This document shows positions 32,862 through 58,140 of a stretch of 64,000 nucleotides of DNA, in pieces; the first letter of the stretch is position 1, and the number at the start of each line of letters is the position of its first letter. Below the pieces are notes generated by a model that worked only from the letters and a program-made list of their open reading frames with translations, ran no database searches and had not been told where the DNA came from. The DNA lies in contig NZ_CAMLHO010000002.1 of the NCBI RefSeq assembly GCF_946479765.1, positions 62,001 to 126,000 on the forward strand. The letters are read 5' to 3'. The translations under genes were made by a program, and so were the position numbers. This DNA comes from an uncultured Aliivibrio sp. Lineage in GTDB: Bacteria; Pseudomonadota; Gammaproteobacteria; Enterobacterales; Vibrionaceae.

Positions 32862-32893
32862 TAAAAAAAAGGCTCACAAGGAGCCTCTTTCTT
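32862..32893 (-). terminator. hairpin terminator between the prophage integrase and ligA
   Basis: The stem AGGCTC / GAGCCT with a 5-base loop is followed on the minus strand by eight T. It would stop leftward transcripts from the integrase (or originally from the gene upstream of ligA) only about 35 bases before the ligA start. It also has a T-rich tail on the plus strand. Confidence 0.75.
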
Positions 32894-32981: not shown

Positions 32982-33956
32982 TCATAATGTGGACAAGGGA
33001 TTTAACTCCATCGCCTCACTTAAGTAGTCAGGAGCAAGGTGTGCATAAGTCATAGTTTGCAGCACAGATGAATGTCCTAGAATTTTTTGTAACGTCAAAA
33101 TATTCCCTCCATTCATAATAAAATGACTTGCAAATGTATGCCTCAATACATGGATGGCCTGTCCTTTTGGGAGCTCAAAGCCAAGACTTTTAAAGGTTTG
33201 ATAAAAGTCTTTATATTGCAACTTAAATAACAACCCACTCCTCCCTGTATATACCTCATCAAATAATGACTGAGTTATAGGCACTGTCCTGTTTTTTCCA
33301 TTTTTGGTATCTACAAAAATAACCTTTCCTGCAACTAGATTCGTGCTTTTCAGGTTAATAACTTCACCCCAGCGACACCCAGTTGCTAGACTAAGCTTTG
33401 CTATTTTTAACGCGTCCCCTTCTAGGTGCGCTAACAATTGCCGAATTTCATCAATACTCAAAAATCCCATTTCAGTCGACGCTACTTTTAAGCGAGTAAT
33501 TCCTTTTAATGGGTGCTCGCCATTAATCTCTCCCAATCCAATGAGAACAGTAAATACTCCACTTAATCTAGTGTGATTTCTGTTTATTGTAGAAGCCGAG
33601 TTTCCTTTCGTTAACATATTTGCACGATAATCTGAAAATAAATTTTTTGTTACTTGATAAACCTTCGGTTCACCTAGCTCCTGATTTAATTTCAATAAGT
33701 GCATCACGTCCTTGTCTCCGCTTTTTAGCTGCTGCCCATGATGCTTGTGCCATAGGTGAATCAATTCAGATAAAGGCCTTTTATCTTTTTCGGTTTCTAT
33801 CCAGCCCTTCTGATTTTTCGTTGCAATAAGCCATCGTTCATACTGAACTGCTTCTGCTTTAGTTCTAAATCTTTTTCTATATCGTGTACCGCTTCGACCT
33901 TGCGGACGACAATCGACCTCATAACCGTTAGGAATGGATTTAATAGACATTGACAT
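32982..33956 (-). CDS. int: P2-type tyrosine integrase
   Basis: Site-specific recombinase for integration and excision. 324 residues: N-terminal arm-binding domain (MSIKSIPNGYEVDCRPQGRSGTRYRKRFRTKAEAVQYERWL), core-binding region about 60-150, and catalytic domain about 165-320. Catalytic residues: Arg in TGCRWGEVINL, His-x-x-Arg in HVLRHTFASHF, His in LGHSSVLQTM, and the nucleophile Tyr in TYAHLAPDY. Next to the left prophage border and divergent from the rest of the phage, adjacent to the repressor as in P2. Confidence 0.95.
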   Translation of the reverse strand: MSMSIKSIPNGYEVDCRPQGRSGTRYRKRFRTKAEAVQYERWLIATKNQKGWIETEKDKRPLSELIHLWHKHHGQQLKSGDKDVMHLLKLNQELGEPKVYQVTKNLFSDYRANMLTKGNSASTINRNHTRLSGVFTVLIGLGEINGEHPLKGITRLKVASTEMGFLSIDEIRQLLAHLEGDALKIAKLSLATGCRWGEVINLKSTNLVAGKVIFVDTKNGKNRTVPITQSLFDEVYTGRSGLLFKLQYKDFYQTFKSLGFELPKGQAIHVLRHTFASHFIMNGGNILTLQKILGHSSVLQTMTYAHLAPDYLSEAMELNPLSTL

Positions 33957-33992: not shown

Positions 33993-34289
33993 TTAAGCCA
34001 TTTTCTGAGAATCGACTTCTCCAGTAATTAATCCGCACTTCTCTTGAGTTGAGAAGGCCGGGCAAACTTGTCCGGCATCTGGTTTAACATCACCAGTCAT
34101 TAGCCACAGTGTGTACTTTTTAAATTGCTCATGATTTACGATTCTTAGCATAACTCCTCCTGCTGGATCTTGCTTTCCAGAAATATACTTTTCCACTGTT
34201 GACGTTGATATCCCTATCTCACTAGCAAAACCTGCTTGCGAATAACCTTCTTCCTTAATTATAGCTTTTAATTTTTTTTCAAAAGACAT
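33993..34289 (-). CDS. P2 C-type phage repressor
   Basis: 98 residues with an N-terminal helix-turn-helix (YSQAGFASEIGISTSTVEKYISGKQDP, about 16-42) and a C-terminal part ending in sequences common to repressors of Vibrio P2-like phages (FKKYTLWLMTGDVKP). Length equals P2 repressor C (99). It is 36 bases upstream of int on the same strand and divergent from cox, so it probably keeps lysogeny by binding the intervening operator (34308-34325 and the motif at 34345). No LexA-type autoproteolysis domain, so induction would not be by RecA cleavage. Confidence 0.88.
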   Translation of the reverse strand: MSFEKKLKAIIKEEGYSQAGFASEIGISTSTVEKYISGKQDPAGGVMLRIVNHEQFKKYTLWLMTGDVKPDAGQVCPAFSTQEKCGLITGEVDSQKMA

Positions 34290-34307
34290 GTTGACCTCCT
34301 GACGTTT

Positions 34308-34325
34308 GTCTGGAATAATCCAGAC
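34308..34325. promoter_or_regulatory. operator-like palindrome in the repressor-cox switch
   Basis: GTCTGGA-ATAA-TCCAGAC, 7-bp perfect arms, lies between the divergent repressor and cox genes. A related site sharing GTCTGGAATA occurs at 40086-40103 upstream of another small regulator. Confidence 0.65.
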
Positions 34326-34390: not shown

Positions 34391-34642
34391 ATGAATGAAA
34401 ATAGTCAGCGTCCAGTAATAATCATCCAGCCAGATATGGCCCCTATTCCTTTAAGGGAGTACGCCCAAAAGCACGGATTAACACTTGAAGCAGTGCGATC
34501 TATGGCTCATAGACATCAAATTCCAACCCTTCAGATAGGTAAATGCTCAACCATTTATGTAAATCAAGCGCAAATGGTTATGGCTTCATTAGAGGCGGCG
34601 GGTTGGGATGTGAAAATCCCTAAAGATAGTTACGTGGCATAA
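34391..34642 (+). CDS. Cox-like excisionase and early regulator
   Basis: 83 residues, DNA-binding fold like P2 Cox (PIPLREYAQKHGLTLEAVRSMAHRHQIPTLQIGK, about 18-53, aligns with the P2 Cox helix-turn-helix and wing). In P2, Cox represses the lysogenic promoter and directs excision. AGAGGA ribosome site 9 bases upstream. First gene of the rightward early operon, facing the repressor. Confidence 0.82.
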   Translation: MNENSQRPVIIIQPDMAPIPLREYAQKHGLTLEAVRSMAHRHQIPTLQIGKCSTIYVNQAQMVMASLEAAGWDVKIPKDSYVA

Positions 34643-34644
34643 GC

Positions 34645-34872
34645 ATGGTTTCAGTACAAATATTCTCAGTAACAAAGCACCAATTAATCAGCGTTATTCC
34701 TGATTGTGAATATTCGTCGAACTTCTACCGCGCCATTGTTGAAATGGAAATAAAACACAATAAATTCGCTGAGGAAATGCTCATATTTCCCCATGAAAAA
34801 ATAGCCATTATTACGTTAAACAACGACCGACAGGTTGTTATTCGAGAGAATACGGATCATGACAAGCACTAG
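34645..34872 (+). CDS. small early phage protein, unknown
   Basis: 75 residues, two bases after cox (MVSVQIFSVTKHQLISVIPDCEYSSNFYRAIVEMEIKHNKFAEEMLIFPHEKIAIITLNNDRQVVIRENTDHDKH). No recognised domain. It overlaps the next gene by 14 bases, implying coupled translation. Confidence 0.65.
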   Translation: MVSVQIFSVTKHQLISVIPDCEYSSNFYRAIVEMEIKHNKFAEEMLIFPHEKIAIITLNNDRQVVIRENTDHDKH

Positions 34873-35119
34873 CGCACTTACTGTTGTATACAACGGATTA
34901 CTTCAAGGTTATCAATTCCAAATGGAAGCTATGAAAGAAAACAGCACACCTGATACCTCTTTTCATTTCCGCTCTGAAAAAATGCGTGAAAGCCTAACTA
35001 ATCAAATCGGCTCTCTGTCGCAGATGGCCTACGATCTTGGTGATCATGATCTAGCTTCAACGCTTTTATCGGTAGCAACAGAGTTTGGCTCTGACGCCAC
35101 TCCACCAATGCCTCTTTAA
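34859..35119 (+). CDS. small early phage protein, unknown
   Basis: 86 residues starting at ATG 34859 (MTSTSALTVVYNGLLQGYQFQMEAMKENSTPDTSFHFRSEKMRESLTNQIGSLSQMAYDLGDHDLASTLLSVATEF). Mostly helical; no known domain. The start overlaps the upstream gene. Fourth in the early operon. Confidence 0.65.
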   Translation: MTSTSALTVVYNGLLQGYQFQMEAMKENSTPDTSFHFRSEKMRESLTNQIGSLSQMAYDLGDHDLASTLLSVATEFGSDATPPMPL

Positions 35120-35133
35120 TTCAGGGCTGTATT

Positions 35134-36057
35134 ATGAATATTTCCTTAGCTTCACTAGCTAAAGCATTTTGCATGCTTGTATTGCTTTCGTGTGCGATTA
35201 CATCTGCATATCTAACGTATTCATTCATGTACGAATTAGGCTCTGCCATTGGTGTGGCGGCTATATTTGCGATTATTGGGATCACTCTTGATTTGGTGAA
35301 AACCATTTCACCTACTTTTATACCCACTGTCGCTAAACAGAATTCATTTATTGCCCTACTTCTTGTTGCTCTAACAGGCTCACTTATGGTGATAAGTACC
35401 ATCGCTTCTATCTCAGCTATCGAGAAAGGTGCAAATCAAATGACGGTAGTCACTAAGCAGAACGTGGCCATAACCGAACAAATCAACAATAAGAAACTGG
35501 AGTTGGAAAATTTACAGTTACTTTCTAGATCGCAGCTAGGTGCTAACCAACCATCAAAAGCAGATGGAACAGCAATCAAAATTTCTCGTGTCACTGACGA
35601 GTTGAATGCGCTTTATCACGCGCAATCAAACACAAAAGACTCTTCAATTTTGAGCCAGTACGACTCAAAAATCACCTTGTTTATAGCGGTATCTATCGAG
35701 GTGGTTTCTGTCGTCATGGCTCTCACTTTACATTCATTAAACACACTTGAAGCAAGTGTAAGAAGTGTATCAAGCCCAGAAAATACAACGGTTACACCGC
35801 CAAGTGTAAGTCAGCAAATTCAAAGTGTATTGCCAAGTGTAAGTACAGACAAAACACTTGAGATGCACTTTGCTGCAAGTGTTCTTAATGAAGCGAAGGA
35901 AGCTATTTTAAGCGGTGCTGTAAAGCCTAGTTATCGAGGGTTAAAAGCAGCCTTTGGGATGCCACAAGAACAAAGCAAGCAGATATTAAATCTACTGCTC
36001 CAACAATCAATTTTAGAGCCGTGGAATAACGGTGGCTACCGACTGAGGGTTACGTGA
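35134..36057 (+). CDS. multi-pass membrane protein with C-terminal winged helix
   Basis: 307 residues. Transmembrane helices about 8-30, 36-52 and 70-92; a coiled coil about 100-160 (KQNVAITEQINNKKLELENLQLL); a fourth transmembrane helix about 180-200 (ITLFIAVSIEVVSVVMALTL); a Ser/Val-rich linker; and a C-terminal domain (about 255-305, NEAKEAILSGAVKPSYRGLKAAFGMPQEQSKQILNLLLQQSILEP) resembling FtsK-gamma or replication-type winged helices. This suggests a membrane-tethered DNA-binding protein; target unknown. The linker DNA has five AAGTGTA repeats. Confidence 0.72.
   Translation: MNISLASLAKAFCMLVLLSCAITSAYLTYSFMYELGSAIGVAAIFAIIGITLDLVKTISPTFIPTVAKQNSFIALLLVALTGSLMVISTIASISAIEKGANQMTVVTKQNVAITEQINNKKLELENLQLLSRSQLGANQPSKADGTAIKISRVTDELNALYHAQSNTKDSSILSQYDSKITLFIAVSIEVVSVVMALTLHSLNTLEASVRSVSSPENTTVTPPSVSQQIQSVLPSVSTDKTLEMHFAASVLNEAKEAILSGAVKPSYRGLKAAFGMPQEQSKQILNLLLQQSILEPWNNGGYRLRVT
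35743..35882 (+). repeat. cluster of AAGTGTA repeats inside a coding region
   Basis: Five direct copies of AAGTGTA (35754, 35763, 35802, 35823, 35835), one AAGTGT (35877), and two inverted ACACTT (35743, 35854) in 140 bases. They encode Ser-Val pairs in the linker of the membrane protein, always with AGT GTA codons. Confidence 0.6.
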
Positions 36058-36188
36058 TGCTGAGTTTGGAAGCTTTCTTAGTAAAGATGGTTATTGCTTA
36101 CATGCAGAATCATGATCGCGCTCCTGTTGATTCGCAGCTGGCGGGTTGGACTGAGTTATATAAAAACTACCTAGGTGCAGCATTATGA
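36057..36188 (+). CDS. phage microprotein, copy 1 of a tandem pair
   Basis: 43 residues (MLSLEAFLVKMVIAYMQNHDRAPVDSQLAGWTELYKNYLGAAL in segments). Its ATG overlaps the upstream stop (TGATG). It shares KM-IAYMQ--...-AP---L--W--LY/W with the next microprotein, so the pair arose by duplication. Function unknown. Too short for usual gene callers, but coupling and paralogy argue it is translated. Confidence 0.6.
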   Translation: MLSLEAFLVKMVIAYMQNHDRAPVDSQLAGWTELYKNYLGAAL

Positions 36189-36316
36189 TGCAGCAACAAG
36201 AATTTATCGCAAAAATGTCGATTGCATATATGCAGCAAAATGGCCATGCGCCATCGGTTGCTCACTTAGAAGATTGGGCAAGTTTGTGGCATGTCATATC
36301 TAGAGTTTCTTGTTAA
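36185..36316 (+). CDS. phage microprotein, copy 2 of a tandem pair
   Basis: 43 residues (MMQQQEFIAKMSIAYMQQNG, then HAPSVAHLEDWASLWHVISRVSC). Overlaps copy 1 by 4 bases and the next gene by 1 base. Paralogue of copy 1: AKMSIAYMQQNGHAP against VKMVIAYMQNHDRAP. Function unknown. Confidence 0.6.
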   Translation: MMQQQEFIAKMSIAYMQQNGHAPSVAHLEDWASLWHVISRVSC

Positions 36317-36501
36317 TGAGGGCTATCTCAACGCGCGGTAAGAGATGTCTATTGTGGCACAGATGGAAAATAGAAGGCTCATATAGCTCTATCACCTATC
36401 GATCATGTAAAGACTGCTCCGCAAGAGCTGTTGAACATACACGCAGTGATATTAAGTTAATTGATTGGGACTGGGTTTTTCATGGCAAGAGCCAACTCTA
36501 A
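36316..36501 (+). CDS. small Cys-containing phage protein
   Basis: 61 residues from ATG 36316, which overlaps the previous stop (TAATG). Contains C-LLWH-RW...SYSSITYRSCKDCSARAVE, a Cys/His pattern (Cys 10, His 14, CKDC about 32-35) that could bind one zinc, like small prophage zinc-ribbon proteins. No firm family assignment. Confidence 0.55.
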   Translation: MRAISTRGKRCLLWHRWKIEGSYSSITYRSCKDCSARAVEHTRSDIKLIDWDWVFHGKSQL

Positions 36502-36515
36502 AAAGGATCGTAATA

Positions 36516-36782
36516 ATGTGTAATTGCTTGAGTGAAACACTAGCTGAAATAACCGAAAAGATAGCAAGTGACCTACCTAATGACGCAGATAAATCGACAT
36601 TTAACGTCGAGTATCAAAATCGATTTATTAGGGTTGACGGTAAAGAAAACAACGTGATGATTAGGGTTTCTTTTGATTATTACAAAATTAAAAAAGACGA
36701 AACTCGCGCCAAAAACAAAACAAACGGCGGTACTAATTTAGCTATGAGTTACTGCCCTTTCTGCGGCAATGAGTATCCATAA
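36516..36782 (+). CDS. small early phage protein, unknown
   Basis: 88 residues from ATG 36516 (MCNCLSETLAEITEKIASDL), with AAAGGA upstream. It ends in MSYCPFCGNEYP, a terminal CPFCG zinc-knuckle half; together with the N-terminal MCNC this could form a Cys4 site. Function unknown. Confidence 0.65.
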   Translation: MCNCLSETLAEITEKIASDLPNDADKSTFNVEYQNRFIRVDGKENNVMIRVSFDYYKIKKDETRAKNKTNGGTNLAMSYCPFCGNEYP

Positions 36783-36806
36783 AGTAAACCATCAAGGTGA
36801 TTAAAT

Positions 36807-37010
36807 ATGACAGTTTGGACAATACCAGAAGCTACAAAGGAATTTCCTGTCGGTGCAAAAGTTAAGTACTACCCGTTAATAGCAAATAAAAAGAATTTCC
36901 TTGAAGGGACTGTTACTAGTGAGCCTTGGATTGTTTGTGGGGAAGTTGTACTTAAAGTCTCAGGCACTGTTGGTGGTTTGAGTATTGACCATCTGGAGTT
37001 ATCAGAATGA
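36807..37010 (+). CDS. small early phage protein, unknown
   Basis: 67 residues (MTVWTIPEATKEFPVGAKVKYYPLIANKKNFLEGTVTSEPWIVCGEVVLKVSGTVGGLSIDHLELSE). The predicted all-beta, SH3-like layout (VGAKVKYYP...EGTVTSEPW...VLKVSG...LELSE) resembles small nucleic-acid-associated phage proteins, but there is no clear family. Ends in an ATGA overlap with the next gene. Confidence 0.6.
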   Translation: MTVWTIPEATKEFPVGAKVKYYPLIANKKNFLEGTVTSEPWIVCGEVVLKVSGTVGGLSIDHLELSE

Positions 37011-37390
37011 AACCAATTACAAGTAAACAAGAGTTTTTGCTTTTCATGGCCAAAAGATACATGGCTCAACATGCGTATAACGAGCCCTGTGATGAGCGCT
37101 TTGATGTGTGGGGAGCTATGTATGACAAGCATCTTTCGCAATCTAATGCGCTTAATGTGACTAAAGGTTGGAAGTATTGCATCTCAGCTTTTGCGCGCTT
37201 CTTGTTTGCGGGGCTTCTAATATCCATTCCTGCAATGTTAATTATTTCTACCGCTTTTACGTTGTCTGGATATGAGCCATTAATGGTTGCTTATGCTGCT
37301 CTTGTTGTATTGCAACTAACTTATGTGTCGTCAGCTATCAACTTAATCACTAGGTATATAGCTCACGGATTAGCAAGGAAGAAACCATGA
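37007..37390 (+). CDS. two-helix membrane protein, unknown
   Basis: 127 residues. A soluble N-terminal part (about 1-57) is followed by two transmembrane helices (about 62-88, FLFAGLLISIPAMLIISTAFTL; about 93-115, LMVAYAALVVLQLTYVSSAI) and a basic tail (ARKKP). ATGA-coupled to both neighbours. An early-operon membrane protein could serve in exclusion, but that is inference. Confidence 0.62.
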   Translation: MKPITSKQEFLLFMAKRYMAQHAYNEPCDERFDVWGAMYDKHLSQSNALNVTKGWKYCISAFARFLFAGLLISIPAMLIISTAFTLSGYEPLMVAYAALVVLQLTYVSSAINLITRYIAHGLARKKP

Positions 37391-37653
37391 AAAACAACTC
37401 ATTAATAAAAGCAAGTTACAAAGAGCTCTATGCGGCAGTTCGCACAGAAGGAGCTCTTGGTCTTATTGCAGTTCTTGATAAAACTCGCACAAAACACGGC
37501 GTTATGATTGCGTGTGATTTATCAGAAAAGGCACACATTGTTTTTCATAGAGAAACTGAAATAAGACGCCATAAATCATTATCTGAGCGATTAATTCAGT
37601 ACAAGCAATATAAGCTCAGAAGACAGCGATTAGATGAAGCTTTAGGTTGTTAG
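37387..37653 (+). CDS. small early phage protein, possible paralogue of the next gene
   Basis: 88 residues; its ATG overlaps the previous stop. LYAAVRTEGALGLIAVLDKTRTK...LSERLIQYKQYKLRR has the same layout as LYKDIYSANRGGGLLELLLAVDEAEKK...LEERLRHYKFEK in the following gene, so the two look like diverged copies. Function unknown. Confidence 0.6.
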   Translation: MKNNSLIKASYKELYAAVRTEGALGLIAVLDKTRTKHGVMIACDLSEKAHIVFHRETEIRRHKSLSERLIQYKQYKLRRQRLDEALGC

Positions 37654-37661
37654 GTGTTGAT

Positions 37662-37931
37662 ATGAAAACAGCAAATAAGTCAGTAACAACTAAACAGCTC
37701 TACAAGGATATTTACTCGGCTAATCGAGGTGGCGGATTGCTTGAGTTATTGCTTGCTGTCGATGAAGCTGAAAAGAAAAGCGACCGTTTTACCTCACGTA
37801 AAATCGTAGGCTGCATAGATCGTATGCGTAATGAAAACATCGTCACAATTAAGTTTAATTTAGAAGAAAGGCTACGTCACTACAAATTTGAAAAGCACAC
37901 TGGCCAATGGCTACGGAGTCCCTGTAGTTAA
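37662..37931 (+). CDS. small early phage protein, possible paralogue of the previous gene
   Basis: 89 residues from ATG 37662 (MKTANKSVTTKQLYKDIYSANRGGGLLELLLAVDEAEKK), with AGG at -9; a TTG 15 bases earlier is less likely. Shares the LY...(8-10)...GLL/IA-LD-/V-E...L-ERL--YK pattern with the upstream gene. Function unknown. Confidence 0.6.
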   Translation: MKTANKSVTTKQLYKDIYSANRGGGLLELLLAVDEAEKKSDRFTSRKIVGCIDRMRNENIVTIKFNLEERLRHYKFEKHTGQWLRSPCS

Positions 37932-37986
37932 ATAATCAACATGAACAACAGCATTACCTTTATTTAATAATTTAAGAGATACATTA

Positions 37987-38970
37987 GTGAATACAACCAA
38001 GCACATTAACGACGAAAACAAGCACAGTGAGCAACCGCTCGCTGCGCTTAGTCGTATGCGCTCGGAAAGTAACGACACGGCACCTCTTGAGTTAAGAACA
38101 AATCACTCTCGCAAGTGGGCAATAGCTCCTGTTTGGCATCCGCAAGAATCTCTTAATGCTGAACTCGAAGTTATTCCTTATGCGAAGCGTAAGAAGAAAC
38201 ACATACCGACACTGAATCGTAAAGCGTTCAACACTATCGAAAAGCACGGCGCATGGGTTAGTGCGTTATGGCCATGTTTGGTGCATAAGCTAATTGAAGT
38301 AGGTATGCGTAAACGTAATCTATCATTTAGATCTGATCATAAACAAAACATCGAGAATACTCTGCGTTGGATTTCTTACAACTCAGACGCAGTAACAGGT
38401 TGCATCAACGTAACTCGCTTATGCATTGAGATAGGTAAAGAGATTAATGTATCAAGCTCTACTATCTCATGGATCATGAAAGAGCTAGTTATTATGGGGA
38501 TCTTGTACGAGCCAGAACATAGTGGGCAATCTATCCAGGACATAATGCACGATGGACGCCTGCCAAGAACGCTATGTACAACGCCACTCTATTACGAGCT
38601 ACTCGGTGTTAAGAATGAAGAGCTTGAACGCCTACGTTCAATCGAGATCCAACGCCGCAAAATAGAAGCCGAAAAACGCTACGAGCAATACGACGCGGAC
38701 ATCGCCTTAAAGACATACTGCCAGAGCAATATCCTGCGCGTATGGGAGTACAGGCACGCACAAGCAACTTCTAGCTACACCATCAAACTGGCAGACATGA
38801 AGCCAGTGGATCGTCTTACCTATATCTCACGCAAGCTAGTTGAACGCATCAAAGCCAAAGGCTGGGCGGTCAGCACAGACATACCTAACATCACTAAGAT
38901 GGCCAACAATCTACTAAGCCGCATGGGGCTCTCTGTTAAGCAGAGCGAGCTCTCACCCTCAACACCCTAA
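37987..38970 (+). CDS. IncFII RepA-like replication initiator
   Basis: 327 residues, GTG start. The central region (about 75-180) follows the IncFII/RepFIB-type RepA layout: KHGAWVSALWPCLVHKLIEVGMRKRNL, then a winged-helix segment (NIENTLRWISYNSDAVTGCINVTRLCIEIGKEINVSSSTISWIMKELVIMGILYEP). It has the charged C-terminal helices of those initiators. A DnaA box lies 143 bases downstream, the place of oriR in IncFII plasmids. An 8-codon reading frame (37941-37967) just upstream could be a leader peptide. P2-type gene A is absent, so this is the likely replication gene. Confidence 0.72.
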   Translation: MNTTKHINDENKHSEQPLAALSRMRSESNDTAPLELRTNHSRKWAIAPVWHPQESLNAELEVIPYAKRKKKHIPTLNRKAFNTIEKHGAWVSALWPCLVHKLIEVGMRKRNLSFRSDHKQNIENTLRWISYNSDAVTGCINVTRLCIEIGKEINVSSSTISWIMKELVIMGILYEPEHSGQSIQDIMHDGRLPRTLCTTPLYYELLGVKNEELERLRSIEIQRRKIEAEKRYEQYDADIALKTYCQSNILRVWEYRHAQATSSYTIKLADMKPVDRLTYISRKLVERIKAKGWAVSTDIPNITKMANNLLSRMGLSVKQSELSPSTP

Positions 38971-39113
38971 TCTGTAGTTACCTTGTCACGCTCTTAGCTG
39001 AGTGGGCATTGTTATGCCTGTTGTTTATTGCTGTATAAAAAGTAAGCGATAGGCAGCAGTAACGCGATCCATTTTGGCTATATCGAGATCCTTTTTAGAT
39101 CGTGTTCTATTAC

Positions 39114-39122
39114 TTATACACA
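39114..39122 (+). promoter_or_regulatory. DnaA box (candidate oriR)
   Basis: TTATACACA is an exact match to TTATNCACA, 143 bases past the RepA-like gene and next to a GATC cluster (39066-39101). In IncFII plasmids oriR with one DnaA box lies just downstream of repA. Confidence 0.6.
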
Positions 39123-39351
39123 GATGTCGGAATAGCCCCCTTTCTAGATAGGTTTTGCCCCTTTGCTAGTCCTGCTAATATTCTTTTGTTATGTGTATCA
39201 AAAATATCTTACTCCAACAGTCCCTGTTGTTAAAAATACCTCCCATTAATTTTTATTACGTTCATACGAAAATAGAAACCACAGTGGTAAAAATTAACGG
39301 GCCCCACAGCCAACGTTTACCACCGCACAAGAACACAGGCTTATCTGTGTT

Positions 39352-39457
39352 CGTTGGCTGCGCTGAAAGTGCTTTTTGTCATTCGACAGGAAGGTTGTCC
39401 ACACTCTGAATATTAAGTGGTAGTTCTTATCGCTACGCGATGGTTCTAGCATGAAAG
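39352..39457 (+). repeat. direct repeat copy 1 flanking the coiled-coil gene
   Basis: About 100 bases matching 40110-40216. The best-conserved part has two identical blocks of 18 bases (starting CCACACTCTGAATATTAA at 39399) and 32 bases (from TAGTTCTTATCGCTACGCGA at 39421). The second contains ATCGC-tac-GCGAT. Confidence 0.75.
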
Positions 39458-39558
39458 TAAATGCGAATTTACATACCCGACAATTAACACATACCGGATA
39501 AGATATATTGATATCTTTTGAAAAGGCTGTGGTAGAATTGAAAACACATGCAGTCTAG

Positions 39559-49835: not shown

Positions 49836-49995
49836 TAGACGAATTGACAGTGCATTATCTCTGCCCTGCGCAGAGCTTCCAATGCCTGACAGTGTGGATA
49901 AAACCGCCCACTTTCAATGGAAGAAGGCGGTCATTATTTTATACCAGGAATGCCGCGCAAAGCATCGAGCGATCCTTGAAACTATGCAGCCTTAG
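49744..49995 (+). CDS. Rz1-like outer-membrane spanin lipoprotein
   Basis: 83 residues, starting inside the Rz gene in another frame and running past it. Signal peptide with lipobox LMMTSC (Cys 17), then a Pro-containing periplasmic part with CAELP and a conserved Cys pair. Its 3' end overlaps the 3' end of the convergent portal gene by 14 bases, so the lysis and head modules are packed without spacer. Confidence 0.82.
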   Translation: MKQIMLCGLLVLMMTSCTSYSVSQEPLTPINRRIDSALSLPCAELPMPDSVDKTAHFQWKKAVIILYQECRAKHRAILETMQP

Positions 49996-50950
49996 AGGGG
50001 TTATCTAACCCTTCATATTCTTTAATCGTAATAATATCCATCCCAACAAAATCATTCAGCTCACACACTGACTCCAATAACGGTACTAGCTCGTTTTTAT
50101 GAAATACACGATCTACTTTGTTTAAATCACTGCTTGAACTAAATCCCTCTCGAACAATGCTCATCAACTCTAACGGGATACGATGACTGGCCAGAACGTC
50201 ATTGGTCGTCATGCTCTTAATATCTTTAAAGGCATCCTTTGCTTCTACTTGACCGATCGGGGTTAGTTCTGGCTTTTTGCCATCTTTGCCTTTTGCGTTA
50301 ACGTAGATGTTTTTAAATGCTCCGCCCTTTGAGAGTTTTTGTTTGATTTCGTTCTCTTGGTCGCCAGTAAGATTCGGGTCATTCATATAAAGAATATACC
50401 CTGCATGCGAGCCGTTAATGTAATACTTACGACGGAACAAGGTTGCATCTTCATTTAACCAAATAGAGCTTAATGCGCCGATGTATTGCGGTAAACCATA
50501 CAGCTCTTGAGATACATCGTATTCAGTTAAGTGAAATATCTGACCGACACGGTAGTCAATTTGCCCTTCATCACTAAACTCTTTAGGCTTATAACAATAC
50601 TCGTCTATCTTTTCTTTGCGACGCATGAATAATGCAGGCAAATGCTTAATAGCAACAATCTCACGAAACCCATTGCGAACCACCTGAAGGTAACCATTAC
50701 CAAAGGTTAAGAAGTCCGCCACAAACCGCTTAAAATCACGCTTCTTAAGTAATGGGTGTAGCGTAACTGAACTACTTGCCATATTACCTTTTACGTACAG
50801 TGCAGAGCCATGCATGGGATTGGCTCGCACCGCTTTTGCGAGCGTATCAAGTGGAATGGGTGTTTCATATAAGCCATTAACAAGCGCTACTTCCATATAG
50901 CTGAGTATGTCACTGCTCATGACGCTTTCTGGTATATCAAAGGTGATCAA
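49982..50950 (-). CDS. P2 gpQ-like portal protein
   Basis: 322 residues, P2/PBSX-type portal: LYETPIPLDTLAKAVRANPMHGSALYVKGNM, DFLTFGNGYLQVVRNGFREIVAIKHLPALFMRR, QIFHLTEYDVSQELYGLPQYIGALSSIWLNEDATLFRRKYYINGSHAGYILYMND. Twelve copies form the DNA entry ring. Downstream of the terminase gene on the minus strand, as in P2 (P then Q, leftward). Confidence 0.95.
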   Translation of the reverse strand: MITFDIPESVMSSDILSYMEVALVNGLYETPIPLDTLAKAVRANPMHGSALYVKGNMASSSVTLHPLLKKRDFKRFVADFLTFGNGYLQVVRNGFREIVAIKHLPALFMRRKEKIDEYCYKPKEFSDEGQIDYRVGQIFHLTEYDVSQELYGLPQYIGALSSIWLNEDATLFRRKYYINGSHAGYILYMNDPNLTGDQENEIKQKLSKGGAFKNIYVNAKGKDGKKPELTPIGQVEAKDAFKDIKSMTTNDVLASHRIPLELMSIVREGFSSSSDLNKVDRVFHKNELVPLLESVCELNDFVGMDIITIKEYEGLDNPSKAA

Positions 50951-50960
50951 AATACGCTCC

Positions 50961-52727
50961 TTATGAGAATGAAATTGTGGTTGTGTTGTCGTTTAAAATA
51001 TCAATCGGCTCCCAATGCAGAACATGCATTGCGGCCCACGCTAAATCGGCGTGCGATCCTTTTTTGGTTCGATTGGATACCATTGTGATCTGATTGCTTG
51101 CCTTGGTAGTGTGCTGTCGTATCATTAAAAAGGAATGAACCACATCATCCCAATCATCACCAAACTGAAGGCGGCCTGCGTTTATGATCTCTCGTGCCTT
51201 ATACGCCATCATGCGCTTCACTTCGGGGCTGTAATCTACCTCTTTCAAACTTGGGTAGAACTTACGTACCAATTCAGCCACCGCCGAGCCTACGCCGCCC
51301 ACATCCATTTCCAAATGCACAACGTTGTATTTCTCAGTGATTTTTTTAATGGCGCGGGCTTGCTCTTCATAGCTCGATCCCTTTAAGCGAATGCGCTCTA
51401 AGAATCTAAATACGCCACCTTTCTTTTTCGGTTTCAGGCTAACAACAAGACCTGCATCATCTGCCCCCTCGCCTTGACCACCGCCTCGAGGATCGTATCC
51501 AACCAATGCTTCAGCATCCCCTGCAGGGCGCTCACGCTCAAGGTGAATATCTTTCCATTGCAAGGTATTTGTTTTACAAGCAAGTAATGCCGTGATGTTA
51601 AAAAAGGACTCTGAATCATCCAAAAACACACAGCGAAGTAAGTTGTCAAAAATGCTTTTAATTGGGTATTTTCGGCGTAACTTGTCCATATTGAAGAAGT
51701 TTGCGCCCCCCTTGATGGCATCATCAACCGTGATCATTTGACGGAAAATGCCATCCGCCCCCATCGCGCCATTTCTCAGTGCTTTGTGGCTAATATCAAT
51801 ACCGAGCTCTTTAGGCCCAGACCATTTTGGATACGCTTCGTGCGCTGTCGTTGATGGTGTAGACAGGTAGGTCGTTCGATATTTCGCATGAATTGACATC
51901 CCTCCAGCAAGATCATCTAACTCTTGGAATTTTGGGATCCAGAACACTTCATCAAAATATAAGTGACCATTAAAGCCTTGGCTGGTGCGCGAGTTCGTCG
52001 ATAAGAAGTTTAAGCACGCGCCATTACTGAGCCATAACTCATCCTTGCCTTTGAGTTCAACATCTCCAATCTCTAACGCAAAACGGCGAATGTAGTTCTT
52101 AAATATCTCACTCTGCTTACGAGAGGCAGATAAGAATACTTGGTTATCACCATTTAAAACCGCATCCTCAAAAGCTTCAAACGCAAAGTAATACGTAAGC
52201 CCTATCTGGCGAGATTTTAAGTAAAAGCGAAACTCGTTAATGTCGTCATTGCATTTATGATCGCGTATGTCCTTCTGGTATTTAAAGAAGGTTTTCTCAC
52301 GAAACTCAGCAAGCATCTCGGCAGTGATACCTGAAATGTCATTTTTAACTTTGTTGTTCGGGCGACCGCGAGGCACACCATTACCACTGTCGCCCTGGCA
52401 GGTTTTCTTTTTTTTGCGCTCAGCGGCTTTATCTCGTTTGTATTTTTGCTCAAGCAGCATCTCAAGTTCAGTTAATTGCGAAGCGTGCTTTCTGTCAATC
52501 CACAGTAAATAAGCAATGCGCTGACGAAGCATTAGCTCAACCGGCGAATCATCGCGCATCTTCTTCCAACCAAACTTAGATATCCATTGCTGAACCGTTC
52601 GTGGATTAACGCCCAGCTCGTCAGCAATTTCTTTGGTTTCGTACTGGCGTAAATACAAACCAAGGGCATGAGTTTGCTCTTGGTTATAAATGGGAGTTTC
52701 ATCCAGTTTTTTGGTTTTCTCGCTCAT
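50961..52727 (-). CDS. P2 gpP-like terminase large (ATPase) subunit
   Basis: 588 residues. N-terminal helix-turn-helix (KEIADELGVNPRTVQQWISKFGW, about 33-55), then ATPase domain with a Walker A variant (KSRQIGLTYYFAFEA, about 169-183) and Walker B (LYFDEVFW, about 252-259). The C-terminal nuclease-type domain has acidic residues (GYDPRGGGQGEGADDAGLVV; HLEMDVGGVGSAVAEL). Drives DNA packaging with the small subunit encoded at 58141. Divergent from gpO across a 153-base promoter region. Confidence 0.95.
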   Translation of the reverse strand: MSEKTKKLDETPIYNQEQTHALGLYLRQYETKEIADELGVNPRTVQQWISKFGWKKMRDDSPVELMLRQRIAYLLWIDRKHASQLTELEMLLEQKYKRDKAAERKKKKTCQGDSGNGVPRGRPNNKVKNDISGITAEMLAEFREKTFFKYQKDIRDHKCNDDINEFRFYLKSRQIGLTYYFAFEAFEDAVLNGDNQVFLSASRKQSEIFKNYIRRFALEIGDVELKGKDELWLSNGACLNFLSTNSRTSQGFNGHLYFDEVFWIPKFQELDDLAGGMSIHAKYRTTYLSTPSTTAHEAYPKWSGPKELGIDISHKALRNGAMGADGIFRQMITVDDAIKGGANFFNMDKLRRKYPIKSIFDNLLRCVFLDDSESFFNITALLACKTNTLQWKDIHLERERPAGDAEALVGYDPRGGGQGEGADDAGLVVSLKPKKKGGVFRFLERIRLKGSSYEEQARAIKKITEKYNVVHLEMDVGGVGSAVAELVRKFYPSLKEVDYSPEVKRMMAYKAREIINAGRLQFGDDWDDVVHSFLMIRQHTTKASNQITMVSNRTKKGSHADLAWAAMHVLHWEPIDILNDNTTTISFS

Positions 52728-52791
52728 GGATTTTCACTGTTAATCATCACTAAAAGCAGTGTGCTACAAATAAATCAATTACTCAGTAATC

Positions 52792-52822
52792 GGTTTTTCT
52801 CTATTACTGAATATAGAAAAAC
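52792..52822. promoter_or_regulatory. late-promoter motif, copy 3 (between divergent P and O)
   Basis: GTTTTTCT-N14-AGAAAAAC, same arms and spacing as 48497-48526. Being symmetrical and placed between the divergent terminase and scaffold genes, it could activate both. An ATTACT-C-AGTAAT palindrome (about 52778-52790) is adjacent. Confidence 0.65.
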
Positions 52823-52880
52823 AGGTGCTTTTAAAAAGAGAGTCCATTCGCTAAATTAAAATGAGAAAACACAGGAGAGA

Positions 52881-53753
52881 ATGTGCATGTTTCAGTCAGA
52901 GCCAATTTGTATTTTAAAAGCAGGGCCGACCATTGATGGTCGTCATACTGACCAACAAGTCATTGACGACATTGCTGATACCTACAACCCAAAACTCTAC
53001 ACGGCACGCATCAATGAAGATCACTGGCAATGGGGTGAAAAATTAGGCTCTGTATTGTCAGTAGAAAAGCGTGGTGATGAATTATGGGCAGTAATTAAAC
53101 CCAACTCACGGTTGCTGGGTAATGTTGAACGCGATCAATTTCTACATACATCATGTGAATACATCGCTGATTTTGCAAAAACAGGCAAAGCGTATTTAAC
53201 AGGCTTGGCCATGACGGACGATCCCGCCTCACTTGGTACGACGCAAGTGCATCTTTCTAGCGATAAGAACAAGGGTCAAGAAAGTGTATCAAGCGGTGCC
53301 ACGGTTAGTCTTGAGTTGCTTTCGGGTAAAGAACATAGCAATCAAGAAACAAGAACATTACTAAGTAAGATTTTTGGTCTGCTTAGTGGAAATCAACCCA
53401 CATCACTTTCAAAGACAGAAAGTGAAGAAGAGGAAACCGAAATGAGTAAAGAGCTTGAAGCGTTACTAACTAAAAACATTGAGCAAAACGAAGCGACCGC
53501 AACGGCATTAAGCTCATTAGCGTCTGCGGTAACTAAGCTTTCTACAGGCGGTGTAGAAGTAACGCCGCCTGTTGATGCTGCGGTAGTTCTGCCAGTTGGC
53601 GAAGTGGTGACACCAGACGCCAATGTTGAATTGTCAGCGAAGGTCGAAACCCTATCTACTCAGGTGACGGAATTGACCACTAAGTTAAGTGCAATGACTG
53701 ATGAAGAGCAGCGCGGACTGGCGGGCGAAGGTGGTGAAAAAACTTGGCTGTAA
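52881..53753 (+). CDS. P2 gpO-like capsid scaffold and protease
   Basis: 290 residues. The N-terminal S73-type protease (about 1-130; ICILKAGPTIDGRHTDQQVIDDIADTYNPKLYTARINEDHW, SCEYIADF with probable catalytic Ser) is followed by a helical scaffolding C terminus (about 190-285). Cleaves the capsid protein during head assembly. GGAGAG ribosome site; first gene of the rightward head operon. Confidence 0.92.
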   Translation: MCMFQSEPICILKAGPTIDGRHTDQQVIDDIADTYNPKLYTARINEDHWQWGEKLGSVLSVEKRGDELWAVIKPNSRLLGNVERDQFLHTSCEYIADFAKTGKAYLTGLAMTDDPASLGTTQVHLSSDKNKGQESVSSGATVSLELLSGKEHSNQETRTLLSKIFGLLSGNQPTSLSKTESEEEETEMSKELEALLTKNIEQNEATATALSSLASAVTKLSTGGVEVTPPVDAAVVLPVGEVVTPDANVELSAKVETLSTQVTELTTKLSAMTDEEQRGLAGEGGEKTWL

Positions 53754-53812
53754 GTGGTAATCGATAGGTATTGCCTGTTTTAAATATTCTTATTTTTATC
53801 GAGTGTTAATTT

Positions 53813-54847
53813 ATGAACGAAGCAACAAGGATCCTACTGGGTGCATACACACAAGCAGTAGCCAAGCAATATGGAATAGGCGATGCAACTGAAAAATTCA
53901 GCGTAACGCCTGCGGCAACACAACGCATCATTGAACAAATTCGTGAGAACAATTGGTTTTTGAAAAAAATCAATATCATTCCTGTAAGCAATCAAAAAGG
54001 CGAAGCGTTAGGTTTGGGTGTCACTGGCATGATCGCAGGTCGTACAGATACATCAGGTGACGGTGAGCGTAAAACAAAATCGGTATTCAATTTAAAGGCA
54101 ATGCCATATCTATGTGAACAAGTGGATTTTGATACACACATGCTGTATCGCCAATTGGATGCATTTGCGCACCTGAAAAACTTTAACTCAATCATCTCGA
54201 ATCAAACGCGTGAGCAGATTGATGCCAACAAGATCACCATCGGCTTTTACGGTGAATCGTGCGAAGCGAACACGAATGCAATCACCAGTCCGAATGGTGA
54301 AGATGTGTGCGAAGGATGGTTCCAAGCACTTCGCAAACACAACCCAAAAGCCATGCTTAAAGAAGGTAAAACCGCCGATGAAATTCGCATCGGCGAAGGT
54401 GGTGACTTTATTAACCTTGATTTGGCGGTAATGAACGTAAGAGGCCTACTTCATGATGCATGTGAAAATGCGTCTGACGTAATCGCCATCATTGGTTCGG
54501 ATTTGCTGGCTTATGAAAAAGCCAAGTTCTATGCGAAGAACGGCAATACCCCAAGCGAAAAAGCCAAAATTGAAGAAACGCAAGTGATTGGCACTTATGG
54601 CGGCCTACCCGCCGTGTCAGTACCAGGATTCCCGCCAAGCGGCATTTTGGTAACAAGCTACAAGAACCTGTCCATCTACATTCAAGAAGGTTCAATTCGT
54701 CGCTCTGTGGGCAAAAAGAACGATGCGAAAAACCGCATTGAAAACTTTGAATCCATGAACATGGCTTACGTTGTTGAGCAGTTAGATAAAGCGGCTGCAA
54801 TTGAATTTGATAACGTGAAGTTATGGATTGATGGTGCATGGGTGTAA
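53813..54847 (+). CDS. P2 gpN-like major capsid protein
   Basis: 344 residues. HK97-fold P2-type capsid: MNEATRILLGAYTQAVAKQYGI, KFSVTPAATQRIIEQIRENNWFLKKINIIPVSNQKGEALGLGVTG, and C-terminal RRSVGKKNDAKNRIENFESMNMAYVVEQLDKAAAIEFDNVKL. The expected N-terminal cleavage by gpO would remove about 30 residues. In P2 the next gene is the small terminase M, which is missing here (see 58141). Confidence 0.95.
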   Translation: MNEATRILLGAYTQAVAKQYGIGDATEKFSVTPAATQRIIEQIRENNWFLKKINIIPVSNQKGEALGLGVTGMIAGRTDTSGDGERKTKSVFNLKAMPYLCEQVDFDTHMLYRQLDAFAHLKNFNSIISNQTREQIDANKITIGFYGESCEANTNAITSPNGEDVCEGWFQALRKHNPKAMLKEGKTADEIRIGEGGDFINLDLAVMNVRGLLHDACENASDVIAIIGSDLLAYEKAKFYAKNGNTPSEKAKIEETQVIGTYGGLPAVSVPGFPPSGILVTSYKNLSIYIQEGSIRRSVGKKNDAKNRIENFESMNMAYVVEQLDKAAAIEFDNVKLWIDGAWV

Positions 54848-54874
54848 CCCGCTCGCTTAATTAAACAACCCCCT

Positions 54875-54947
54875 CACAGGCTTGCGCTTGCGCTATCAAG
54901 AAAATGTACTGTTCGTTTCTTGTTATTCGCTACGCGCTTAGCCTGTG
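54875..54947 (+). other. large imperfect hairpin in the capsid-L gap
   Basis: CACAGGCT..GCGC (54875-54887) pairs with GCGC..AGCCTGTG (54934-54947), enclosing an inner AAGAAA/TTTCTT stem. It fills the 117-base gap where P2 carries gene M. No T-run follows. Could be an RNA processing element or a scar of the gene's removal. Confidence 0.5.
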
Positions 54948-54964
54948 TTCTAAAGGAGTGTCAT

Positions 54965-55423
54965 ATGAGTCACATGGAATTTATTGGCAATAAAGATAAT
55001 GCACACGAAAGCCAGTTACCTGTAACTGCGCAGTACCCTGCACTCACTGTTGCAGAGTTTCAAGCTGTGTTTCATTTTTTAAGTAATGAGACAGAGATTG
55101 GCATTTTGCATCACCTTACTCTTGCTCGATTAACGGTTCACACTGAACTTGTGGAAATAATCACTTTGCATGAAACACTTGATCATGTTTCCGTGCATTG
55201 GTTTGGTGAGTCGGCGTCAGGCGTATCGCTTTACAAGCAAGCGGTGTTCTCTCTGGCGGCAAATCGCATCATAGGAAATAAACTCAGTACGGACGCCACC
55301 GCAGAGGCGGCAGACCGACAAGAAGCACTGCAGCAAAAAGCGGACAACTGCTTGGTGCAATACCGCCAAGCAGTTGATTTACTATTGAATGGCAAAGCAA
55401 CCTATACCTTTGAAATGGTGTAA
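54965..55423 (+). CDS. P2 gpL-like head completion protein
   Basis: 152 residues from ATG 54965 (AAAGGAG ribosome site). GPL family features: FQAVFHFLSNETEIGILHHLTLARLTVHTEL, SLYKQAVFSLAANRIIGNKLSTDATAEAADRQEALQQKADNCLVQYRQAVDLLLNG. Closes the filled head for tail attachment. Confidence 0.88.
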   Translation: MSHMEFIGNKDNAHESQLPVTAQYPALTVAEFQAVFHFLSNETEIGILHHLTLARLTVHTELVEIITLHETLDHVSVHWFGESASGVSLYKQAVFSLAANRIIGNKLSTDATAEAADRQEALQQKADNCLVQYRQAVDLLLNGKATYTFEMV

Positions 55424-55426
55424 AGC

Positions 55427-55897
55427 ATGAAAGCATTACAAAGTTTAACCGACCTATTTACCCAATCCGTAACGGATGCAAAGAACGTCGAGCTGTGGGC
55501 TGAAAATGGTCAGATTGATTGTACTCAAGGATTGTATGTAGACGGGTTTGATATTGCTTACACGGTAAATATCAACATGAGTGATGTCGATATACAGCCT
55601 GAAATTTTAATGATGCACTTGGTGGTCTGGCTTAATAAATACGATGTAGACAGAGAAACTAAAGGGCTAGAGCCTCCCACCTTTGCAACTCAATGTTTAG
55701 ATAACGGACATTTTGATCTTAAGTTGCAAATAGATATTAAAGAGGCTTATTCGCTAGAAGAAAGCGCGACGGGAGTATGGAAGCAAGGTGATGTTCGCCA
55801 TGATTGTGTTAGTGACTTTGCTATCGCTGTTGTTGAAGATGAACTTCCGGCTCTTGAGTTTACTGGCCCTCTTGGGGATTTACCTGAATGCAGTTAA
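55427..55897 (+). CDS. P2 gpR-like tail completion protein
   Basis: 156 residues: MKALQSLTDLFTQSVTDAKNVELWAENGQIDCTQG...DGFDIAYTVNINMSDVDIQPEILMMHLVVWLNKYD follows the P2 gpR pattern (RY-L-I---D). Three bases after L, overlaps S by 10 bases. Confidence 0.86.
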   Translation: MKALQSLTDLFTQSVTDAKNVELWAENGQIDCTQGLYVDGFDIAYTVNINMSDVDIQPEILMMHLVVWLNKYDVDRETKGLEPPTFATQCLDNGHFDLKLQIDIKEAYSLEESATGVWKQGDVRHDCVSDFAIAVVEDELPALEFTGPLGDLPECS

Positions 55898-56415
55898 CTA
55901 ACCCTGAGCAATTAACCTCGATGTTCGAGAGTTTGGCGCTGAGTCCTGCACAAAAGTTCGAGCTGAATCGAAAGATGGCCAATCGCTCTCGGCAGTTCTT
56001 TCGGGCGCAAATTCGCCAACAGAGAGACATTGATAATACTCCCTATCAAGAACGAACTCGACGAACAAGAAAACAGTTAAATGATGGTGTCATTCTCTCA
56101 ACAAAAAGTAATAAGAACATGTTGATGGGATTGAGTCGCGCCTTAAAGACTCGCGTAGACAGCGGATCATTTGAAGTGGGCCTAACTGGTGTTCCTGCAA
56201 AAATTGGACGCCAACATAACGAAGGTCAAACGATGTCGTTTACCACTCGACTGAATGGATTTTATGACTCAAAAACCAATCAATGGATGGGTGGTGTTAA
56301 AACCAAGAATAACTACCGAATGCCAAAACGAACGTTCATCGGCTGGACTCCCTCTCTTGAGCGAGAATTGATGGCCATGATGCGCACTGAATTAGTAATG
56401 AATATGGAGTCGTAA
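55888..56415 (+). CDS. P2 gpS / Mu gpG-like tail completion protein
   Basis: 175 residues of the phage virion morphogenesis family: LSPAQKFELNRKMANRSRQFFRAQIRQQRDIDNTPYQERTRRT near the N terminus and RMPKRTFIGWTPSLERELMAMM at the end. Needed for head-tail joining. Ends immediately before the DUF2635 gene. Confidence 0.9.
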   Translation: MQLTNPEQLTSMFESLALSPAQKFELNRKMANRSRQFFRAQIRQQRDIDNTPYQERTRRTRKQLNDGVILSTKSNKNMLMGLSRALKTRVDSGSFEVGLTGVPAKIGRQHNEGQTMSFTTRLNGFYDSKTNQWMGGVKTKNNYRMPKRTFIGWTPSLERELMAMMRTELVMNMES

Positions 56416-57740: not shown

Positions 57741-57756
57741 CGTACTGGAGTAATTC

Positions 57757-58122: not shown

Positions 58123-58140
58123 ACCAATTAAGGGGTTGTT

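What the first reader, a model, noticed from the sequence alone, without database searches (positions are those of the whole stretch)
37941..39122. IncFII plasmid-type replicon inside a P2-like phage
Instead of the P2 rolling-circle gene A there is a RepA-like initiator followed 143 bases later by TTATACACA and a GATC cluster, the arrangement of IncFII repA-oriR, with a possible short leader peptide upstream. The phage would replicate by theta replication from oriR and might persist as a plasmid.
Basis: partly seen in the sequence, partly recalled or inferred. Interest (0 to 1): 0.75.

Follow-up and report, generated by a model that had tools for sequence, protein, structure and literature searches.

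The report
Phage running on a plasmid origin
A virus integrated in the DNA of an Aliivibrio-type bacterium carries, where most examined relatives keep a predicted rolling-circle gene, a replication gene and predicted origin that match those of local plasmids, apparently without the RNA copy-number brake predicted for most of the plasmid copies, so it would likely copy itself by an unbraked plasmid-style mechanism after leaving the chromosome.

Summary
ORF 37987-38970 is 70-78% identical to initiators of six Aliivibrio plasmids and a diverged relative of the IncFII/L/M/I RepA family (E 4e-11, below the curated cut-off). A ~500-bp predicted origin follows (DnaA box, conserved blocks). Within the phage part of the window only 38134-39473 matches seven plasmid sequences. 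The phage is a P2-head/Mu-tail mosaic integrated beside ligA. Ten phage loci carry the module. Of 80 IMG/VR loci with a related baseplate gene, 8 have it, 57 have predicted rolling-circle genes, 15 are unresolved. Antisense-RNA-like structure upstream of rep: 5 of 7 plasmid copies, 0 of 10 phage copies; in the sources scanned only R100 matches Rfam CopA. Phage Reps form one clade, 85/87. Best reading: a captured theta replicon, apparently without copy control, put under phage early control for lytic replication. Plasmid maintenance is not supported. Replication is untested.

The parts
32875..32886 (.). attL core CACAAGGAGCCT, in the intergenic terminator beside ligA (second copy at G000:C2:129000-129011, 3 kb beyond the window, beside a gene taken as zipA)
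   Evidence: 12-nt direct repeat; in 11 of 11 other loci of the genus examined the two genes lie 88-92 bp apart
32982..33956 (-). tyrosine integrase
   Evidence: PF00589 / Int_N, phrog_1
33993..34289 (-). CI-like repressor (predicted lysogeny repressor)
   Evidence: HTH_3, phrog_147 E 3e-26
34291..34319 (+). promoter-like site between repressor and cox, predicted early promoter
   Evidence: TTGACC-17-AATAAT, 10 of 12 with TG before the second hexamer; the scan as a whole finds fewer sites (11) than shuffles (mean 16.6)
34391..34642 (+). Cox-like excisionase/repressor
   Evidence: phrog_575 E 3e-10
34645..37931 (+). small genes in the same direction, leading into rep
   Evidence: ORF list; several conserved in related phages
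37941..37967 (+).
37987..38970 (+). rep: 327-aa plasmid-type replication initiator (diverged member of the IncFII/L/M/I RepA superfamily)
   Evidence: dN/dS 0.05-0.10 in the 8 comparisons made
38134..39473 (+). the only stretch of the phage within the window whose DNA matches the seven Aliivibrio plasmid sequences compared: rep from codon 50 through the predicted origin
   Evidence: blastn of 32875-64000, E 1e-5
39001..39022 (+). terminator-like hairpin just after rep, in a stretch partly conserved between phage and plasmid copies
39066..39101 (+). three GATC; the first two lie 21 bp apart, a spacing kept in 8 of 10 phage copies (and in plasmid L010)
39114..39122 (+). DnaA box TTATACACA
   Evidence: exact consensus in 6 of 10 phage and 3 of 7 plasmid copies; ColIb-P9 and R100 have TTATCCACA at +167 and +176
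39126..39138 (+). GTCGGAATAGCCC, just downstream of the box; predicted Rep-binding site
   Evidence: GTCGGAAT kept in all 17 copies aligned
39172..39187 (+). CTGCTAATATTCTTTT, predicted unwinding region
   Evidence: TGCTAATATTC kept in all 17 copies aligned
39239..39302 (+). CCTCCC-stem-loop-CGGGC, predicted single-strand priming signal
   Evidence: same layout at +372 in ColIb-P9 and +368 in R100; DNA fold z -2.4
39378..39389 (+). GTCATTCGACAG block, conserved origin-distal element
   Evidence: present in 10 of 10 phage and 7 of 7 plasmid copies and in pVIBHAR and PE002A, absent from ColIb-P9 and R100
39428..39442 (+). TATCGCTACGCGATG block, distal end of the conserved module
   Evidence: not kept in plasmid copies L003, L009 and C95
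41764..48468 (+). Mu-like baseplate and fibre module
49982..61324 (.). P2-like head/packaging genes (portal and large terminase on the minus strand) and tail genes

Best explanation
An integrated P2/Mu-mosaic prophage carries, in the slot where most examined relatives keep a predicted rolling-circle gene, a 1.3-kb stretch matching a plasmid initiator gene and predicted origin (rep-oriR), without the antisense-RNA-like structure predicted upstream of most plasmid copies, and it is predicted to use this module, likely switched by the phage repressor/Cox early promoter, to replicate its excised circle in theta fashion during lytic growth. Shown: homology of rep, conservation of the downstream non-coding module, its place and orientation among the early genes, integration beside ligA, lack of a large second replication ORF in the RepA loci examined. 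Predicted from folding: absence of the antisense structure. Inferred: that Rep binds beside the DnaA box and opens the origin, that initiation is unbraked (runaway-like) once the repressor is lifted, that theta replication gives circles which the P2-type terminase can package, and that the repressor must keep rep silent while the origin is in the chromosome.
For: Rep 70-78% identical to annotated initiators of 6 Aliivibrio plasmids; family match over nearly the full model. Downstream module conserved in 10 phage and 7 plasmid copies, with a DnaA box and a CCTCCC...CGGGC stem in the order they have in ColIb-P9 and R100. Plasmid-matching DNA is confined to 38134-39473. Replication slot in 80 related loci: RepA 8, GPA-type family 41, second rolling-circle-type family 16, unresolved 15; none of the RepA loci has another ORF of 480 aa or more in the stretch examined. 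Antisense-strand fold z < -3 in 0 of 10 phage, 5 of 7 plasmid copies and 2 of 2 control plasmids with antisense control. Purifying selection on rep. Phage Reps form one clade. Analogies: SGI1, an integrative element, replicates after excision from a plasmid-type RepA-oriV (PMC7826253, passages); R1 loses copy control when copA is weakened and repA raised (PMC3495755, passages).
Against: No replication experiment. Formal family cut-offs are not met. The exact DnaA consensus is kept in 6 of 10 phage copies; the other four are one base off. Absence of antisense structure is a fold prediction; 2 of 7 plasmid copies (L002, L009) also miss the threshold, none of the Aliivibrio plasmids scanned matches Rfam CopA, and my first hairpin scan missed both positive controls. 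The CCTCCC...CGGGC element is missing in phage L008 and in 4 of 7 plasmid copies by the pattern used. The promoter scan finds no excess over shuffles. The phage clade is supported 85/87, short of the usual mark, and the root is by midpoint.
Confidence: 0.73

Rival explanations
1. Phage-plasmid: the replicon maintains the prophage as a low-copy plasmid in lysogens.
For: The module matches plasmid replicons; a different Vibrio phage, 10N.237.312.C11_PE002A, pairs a RepA of this superfamily with ParA.
Against: Integrase and att-like repeats, insertion beside ligA on a 230-kb contig; no ParA among the ORFs scanned; no antisense-like structure; none of the 6 IMG/VR contigs whose two ends were compared has terminal repeats.
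Confidence: 0.13
2. Passenger: the cassette was captured but the phage replicates by another, unrecognised gene.
For: Several conserved early genes have no known function; replication is untested.
Against: Module kept in 10 phage loci, with dN/dS 0.05-0.10 in the 8 comparisons made and a conserved non-coding part; no large rolling-circle-type ORF beside it; the candidate o35134 is absent from 3 of the 10.
Confidence: 0.08
3. Exclusion device: the prophage Rep/origin mainly acts against related plasmids by incompatibility or titration.
For: The same genome holds a contig with overlapping ends, about 4.8 kb when closed (C95), with a 79-80% identical Rep over its larger part and a related origin.
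Against: That plasmid coexists with the prophage; the position is that of the phage replication gene in relatives, which fits replication better.
Confidence: 0.04

Closest known systems
Aliivibrio plasmid replicons (pVSAL54, pAWOD150, pAWOD920 and relatives)
   Same: Rep 70-78% identical and shared downstream blocks
   Different: Stand-alone plasmids; 5 of 7 copies have antisense-RNA-like structure upstream of rep, 0 of 10 phage copies do
IncI1 ColIb-P9 RepZ and IncFII R100 RepA-oriR replicons
   Same: Initiator superfamily; DnaA box 144 versus 167/176 bases after the stop; CCTCCC...CGGGC stem-loop
   Different: 28% identity to RepZ, none significant to R100 RepA; no CopA-like structure, no conserved leader
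Vibrio phage 1F53_PE003 (PQ189388) and other P2-head/Mu-tail phages
   Same: Head and tail genes in the same order; capsid 69%, baseplate J 57% identical
   Different: Replication slot holds a rolling-circle-type gene
Vibrio phage 10N.237.312.C11_PE002A (PQ189289)
   Same: Phage with a RepA of the same NCBIfam family and a shared GTCATTCGACAGG block after it
   Different: Annotated with lambda-type packaging genes and ParA (and with an 'integrase' note); RepA only 23% identical
Salmonella genomic island 1
   Same: Integrative element with a plasmid-type RepA-oriV that drives replication after excision (PMC7826253, passages)
   Different: Not a phage; IncN2/N3-related RepA under helper-plasmid activators; translated leader required

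Membership tests
IncFII/IncL/M-type RepA (NCBIfam NF040977) | score at or above the curated cut-off of 70 bits | tested here: not met
   43 bits, E 4e-11, residues 67-313 on 10-264 of 266; 4 relatives scanned (two plasmid, one phage, one of unknown context) score 45-49 bits
IncFII RepA (Pfam PF02387) | Pfam match | tested here: not met
   none for the window protein, 0 of 26 alignment members at E 0.01, 0 in the genome; an older precomputed version is listed for 38 of 57 relatives
IncFII-type replicon | DnaA box in the non-coding stretch downstream of rep | tested here: met
   box at +144; +167 in ColIb-P9, +176 in R100
IncFII-type replicon | CopA-like antisense RNA upstream of rep | tested here: not met
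   best antisense fold z in the window -1.3; 0 of 10 phages below -3. Rfam CopA found in R100 and in none of the 8 other sources scanned, Aliivibrio plasmids included; the window itself was not in that scan, phages L008 and L013 were
IncFII-type replicon | conserved leader peptide coupled to rep | tested here: not met
   8-codon ORF not conserved
IncFII-type replicon | Rep-dependent theta replication | not testable with these tools
   needs an experiment
Phage-plasmid | extrachromosomal prophage | tested here: not met
   integrated beside ligA in the one genome held; an additional free form is not excluded
Phage-plasmid | partition system | tested here: inconclusive
   none among the ORFs scanned; not every small ORF was scanned
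P2-like phage | P2-type portal, terminase, scaffold, capsid | tested here: met
   phrog_68, phrog_5909, phrog_73, phrog_70; capsid matches P2-family capsids
P2-like phage | rolling-circle gene A | tested here: not met
   none among the ORFs scanned; slot holds rep
P2-like phage | P2-type tail/baseplate | tested here: not met
   baseplate hub genes are Mu-like

The most novel reading that the evidence does not exclude
A lineage of integrating phages has traded rolling-circle replication for a plasmid theta replicon deprived of its antisense copy brake: in effect a natural runaway plasmid origin, held silent in the chromosome by the phage repressor and released as the engine of lytic growth.
Probability: 0.6. 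Interest if true: 0.72.

Novelty: new variant of a known kind. Interest (0 to 1): 0.6.

Why it matters
Phages with plasmid-type initiators described in the papers consulted use them to keep the prophage as a plasmid. Here the replicon sits in an integrating phage and is predicted to serve lytic replication, with the copy-control part apparently gone. If true, that is a concrete case of converting a plasmid's self-limiting replicon into a viral amplifier; it predicts repressor-dependent silencing of a second origin in the chromosome and sets up a direct test of whether P2-type packaging accepts theta-made circles. The small plasmid with a related replicon in the same genome makes cross-talk between prophage and plasmid testable in one strain.

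Tried and rejected
Structure route: the AlphaFold model of Rep from 26 sequences had mean pLDDT 63; Foldseek gave only weak matches, mostly winged-helix regulators in the rows shown, none at E <= 0.001 in the PDB or viral libraries, so it was not used. PDB sequence search: no match. Hairpin-plus-T-run scan upstream of rep missed both positive controls and was replaced by fold z-scores. A simple HUH motif scan of the large ORFs found nothing in any of them, including proteins that then matched Phage_GPA, so the motif scan was dropped. A first regular expression for the CCTCCC...GGGC element was wrong and was corrected. tRNA at the right end: a tRNA-like stretch was suspected, ARAGORN finds none. 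Terminal repeats as a sign of circular contigs: none in 6 pairs. pVIBHAR's ORF upstream of the shared origin element is not a Rep relative by BLASTP (E 0.49) and matches no NCBIfam model. 'IncFII' in the strict sense was rejected in favour of a diverged member of the wider superfamily. Plasmid maintenance was rejected as the main role.

Literature: ten searches of CC-licensed PMC papers; in the listings seen and in passages of six papers I met no report of this arrangement in Aliivibrio or P2/Mu-type phages. Subscription papers and preprints were not covered.

Full report
WHAT IS THERE. The ORF 37987-38970 (+, 327 aa, GTG start) and TTATACACA at 39114-39122 are as described. TTATACACA occurs once on both strands of the 64-kb window; three GATC lie at 39066, 39087 and 39098. 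In 3000 shuffles of the 503 bases after the gene a GATC triple arose 3 times, a box 90 times and both 0 times. The 8-codon leader ORF at 37941 is real but not conserved.

THE PROTEIN. In 72,556 plasmid records tblastn finds six, all Aliivibrio, 70-78% identical and annotated as replication initiators; in 50,697 phage records it finds none at E 1e-5. Of 57 homologous proteins 38 carry a precomputed IncFII_repA label, but the current Pfam copy gives no such match to the window protein or to any of 26 relatives. NCBIfam's RepA_IncFII_LM matches residues 67-313 at E 4e-11, 43 bits against a cut-off of 70; R100 RepA and ColIb-P9 RepZ match the same model strongly. Direct comparison gives 28% identity over 205 aa to ColIb-P9 RepZ, E 8e-11, a profile-profile probability of 95% to 18 RepZ-type proteins, and nothing significant to R100 RepA (in the last the R100 side was a single sequence). 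So it is a diverged member of the wider superfamily, nearer to the IncI branch than to IncFII proper.

THE ORIGIN. Aligning the DNA after rep in 10 phage and 7 plasmid copies shows a module of about 500 bp with blocks shared by both kinds: a block after the stop, the DnaA box position, GTCGGAAT just beyond it and TGCTAATATTC (both in 17 of 17), and GTCATNCGACAG (17 of 17; absent from ColIb-P9 and R100). The exact TTWTNCACA consensus is kept in 6 of 10 phage and 3 of 7 plasmid copies; the other four phages are one base off. R100 and ColIb-P9, fetched as yardsticks, have TTATCCACA at +176 and +167 and a CCTCCC-stem-CGGGC element at +368 and +372. The window has that element at +269 and nowhere else on its + strand; by a pattern that also allows CTTCCC, 9 of 10 phage copies (five with CCTCCC, four with CTTCCC; L008 has none) and 3 of 7 plasmid copies have it. 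I read it as the single-strand priming site of such origins; that name is recalled, not from a call. For R1, DnaA is reported to bind its box only when RepA is bound immediately downstream, while R1 can also replicate without DnaA and mutating the box raised copy number (PMC5883639, passages); hence GTCGGAATAGCCC is my predicted Rep site, and an imperfect box need not be fatal. blastn of 32875-64000 against the seven plasmid sequences finds matches only within 38134-39473, from codon 50 of rep to the end of the module.

THE ELEMENT. An integrase, a CI-like repressor, a Cox-like protein, small early genes, rep, a Mu-like baseplate module and P2-like head genes follow each other. The 12-nt repeat CACAAGGAGCCT lies at 32875-32886 and at C2:129000-129011, with an NAD-dependent DNA ligase gene (ligA) on one side and a 361-codon ORF that I take for zipA on the other (the name zipA is recalled, no family search was made). 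In 11 of 11 other loci of the genus examined these two genes lie 88-92 bp apart (14 genomes matched, the window's own included; 12 loci were given, one of them the window's own). The element is therefore an integrated prophage of about 34.1 kb.

RELATIVES. Eight IMG/VR contigs and one contig titled Aliivibrio sp. MAG carry rep at 76-95% identity (the other four loci are plasmids or plasmid-like contigs). With the window that is ten loci; the baseplate genes follow rep in 10 of 10, and an integrase alignable to the window's (40-75% identity, or the window's own) is present in 8 of 10. Among 329 genomes of the family, 7 have a rep match, the window's own and the MAG's included. Searching IMG/VR with the baseplate hub protein found 95 loci, of which 80 were returned. 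Their replication slot holds RepA in 8 (the same eight contigs), one large ORF family in 41, a second in 16 (one of them, L068, by a partial tblastn match), and is unresolved in 15; 12 of those 15 have under 3.4 kb of sequence upstream, L110 has 5.6 kb and L085 and L094 have 10 kb. Of eight representatives sent to Pfam, six of the first family match Phage_GPA and two of the second match REP_ORF2-G2P; the other members are assigned by similarity, and both families are taken as rolling-circle types. The nearest isolated phage, Vibrio phage 1F53_PE003, has the second type. Loci L045, L049 and L050, with a hub 68-70% identical to the window's, hold the first type and L048 (71%) the second, while RepA loci L044, L046 and L047 are at 67-68%: the slot does not follow the tail.

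LOSS OF THE COPY BRAKE. I folded the antisense strand of the 300 bases upstream of rep in 90-nt windows against shuffles (for C95 the start was set at the first aligned codon). Phage copies: 0 of 10 below z -3, the lowest -2.63. Aliivibrio plasmid copies: 5 of 7 below -3 (-3.3 to -8.7); L002 (-2.5) and L009 (-2.6) miss it. Controls: ColIb-P9 -5.8 and R100 -3.7; Rfam's CopA is found in R100 and in none of the other 8 sources scanned, so an antisense RNA in the Aliivibrio plasmids is itself a prediction. R1 plasmids run away when copA transcription falls and repA transcription rises (PMC3495755, passages). The phage gene instead lies in a run of same-strand genes after a promoter-like site at 34291-34319 next to cox; that the repressor controls it is inferred.

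EVOLUTION. In a tree of 32 Rep proteins (the 10 phage loci, 8 plasmid copies and 14 of the 57 database proteins) the phage Reps fall into one clade, 85/87, with one change of label in 98% of 200 bootstrap trees; five database proteins of unknown context lie inside it. One capture from a plasmid lineage is the simplest account; the midpoint root leaves direction less sure. dN/dS between the window's rep and eight others is 0.05-0.10, with dS above 1.5 for five of them; L019 was left out of that script.

HOW IT LIKELY WORKS. Repressed, the prophage is copied with the chromosome. After induction the early genes would give Cox and Rep; the excised circle would be opened at oriR by Rep with DnaA, and replicate as theta molecules without antisense feedback, giving circles for the P2-type terminase. 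That P2 packages circles is recalled. In SGI1, RepA expressed in cells with the cognate origin in the chromosome gave no transformants, and the authors hypothesised that it is harmful or lethal (PMC7826253, passages), which predicts tight repression here.

AGAINST PLASMID MAINTENANCE. Integration, integrase, no ParA seen in the ORFs scanned, no antisense-like structure, and no terminal repeats in the six IMG/VR contigs compared. By contrast Vibrio phage 10N.237.312.C11_PE002A, found with ColIb-P9 RepZ as query (two records), has a RepA of this family (285 bits) annotated together with ParA; its annotation also carries one 'integrase' note. Phage-plasmids are described as typically lacking integrases (PMC12977533, passages); P1-like elements that became integrative while keeping plasmid replication and partition genes are reported (PMC10879196, passages); mycobacteriophages with RepA-like initiators carry parABS in place of the integration cassette (PMC7157519, passages).

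NOVELTY. Both parts are known kinds; the combination, a plasmid replicon apparently without copy control as predicted lytic replicon of an integrating phage lineage, was not met in ten literature searches (listed under Tried and rejected). I rate it a new variant of a known kind.

Noticed in passing
window 40985-41464 (+): A 159-aa protein resembling residues 156-289 of the phage's own large terminase (31% identity), with relatives at about 48-53% in L014, L018 and L020 (partial in L013): a stand-alone terminase fragment kept as a gene.
   Followed up: partly
window 39357-39461 and 40115-40219: A 105-nt direct repeat (82%) of the distal end of the predicted origin flanks ORF 39558-40034, a repetitive charged protein with a hydrophobic end; tblastn did not find the ORF in the other RepA phage loci, so it looks like an insertion beside the origin.
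   Followed up: partly
G000 contig C95 (L022), 4889 bases: A contig with a 54-base end overlap (likely a circular plasmid) in the same genome, with a Rep 79-80% identical to the prophage's over its larger part and a related origin, and with antisense-like structure that the phage lacks: possible cross-talk or incompatibility.
   Followed up: partly
L021 1396-4052 (C2:125395-128051), just past the window end: Between the phage tail genes and attR lie a DNA methyltransferase (window 62099-63145), an unknown 216-aa ORF and a 669-aa ORF with helicase (UvrD/GajB-like) matches: a possible defence cargo.
   Followed up: partly
window 39294-39392: This origin-distal stretch also matches intergenic DNA of Vibrio plasmids (26 plasmid records match the module, 19 of them Vibrio), including pVIBHAR, whose upstream ORF is not a recognisable relative of this Rep: an exchangeable origin part.
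   Followed up: partly
window 35134-36057 (+): A 307-aa early protein with hydrophobic N-terminal stretches and no Pfam or PHROG family, present in 7 of the 10 RepA phage loci.
   Followed up: no
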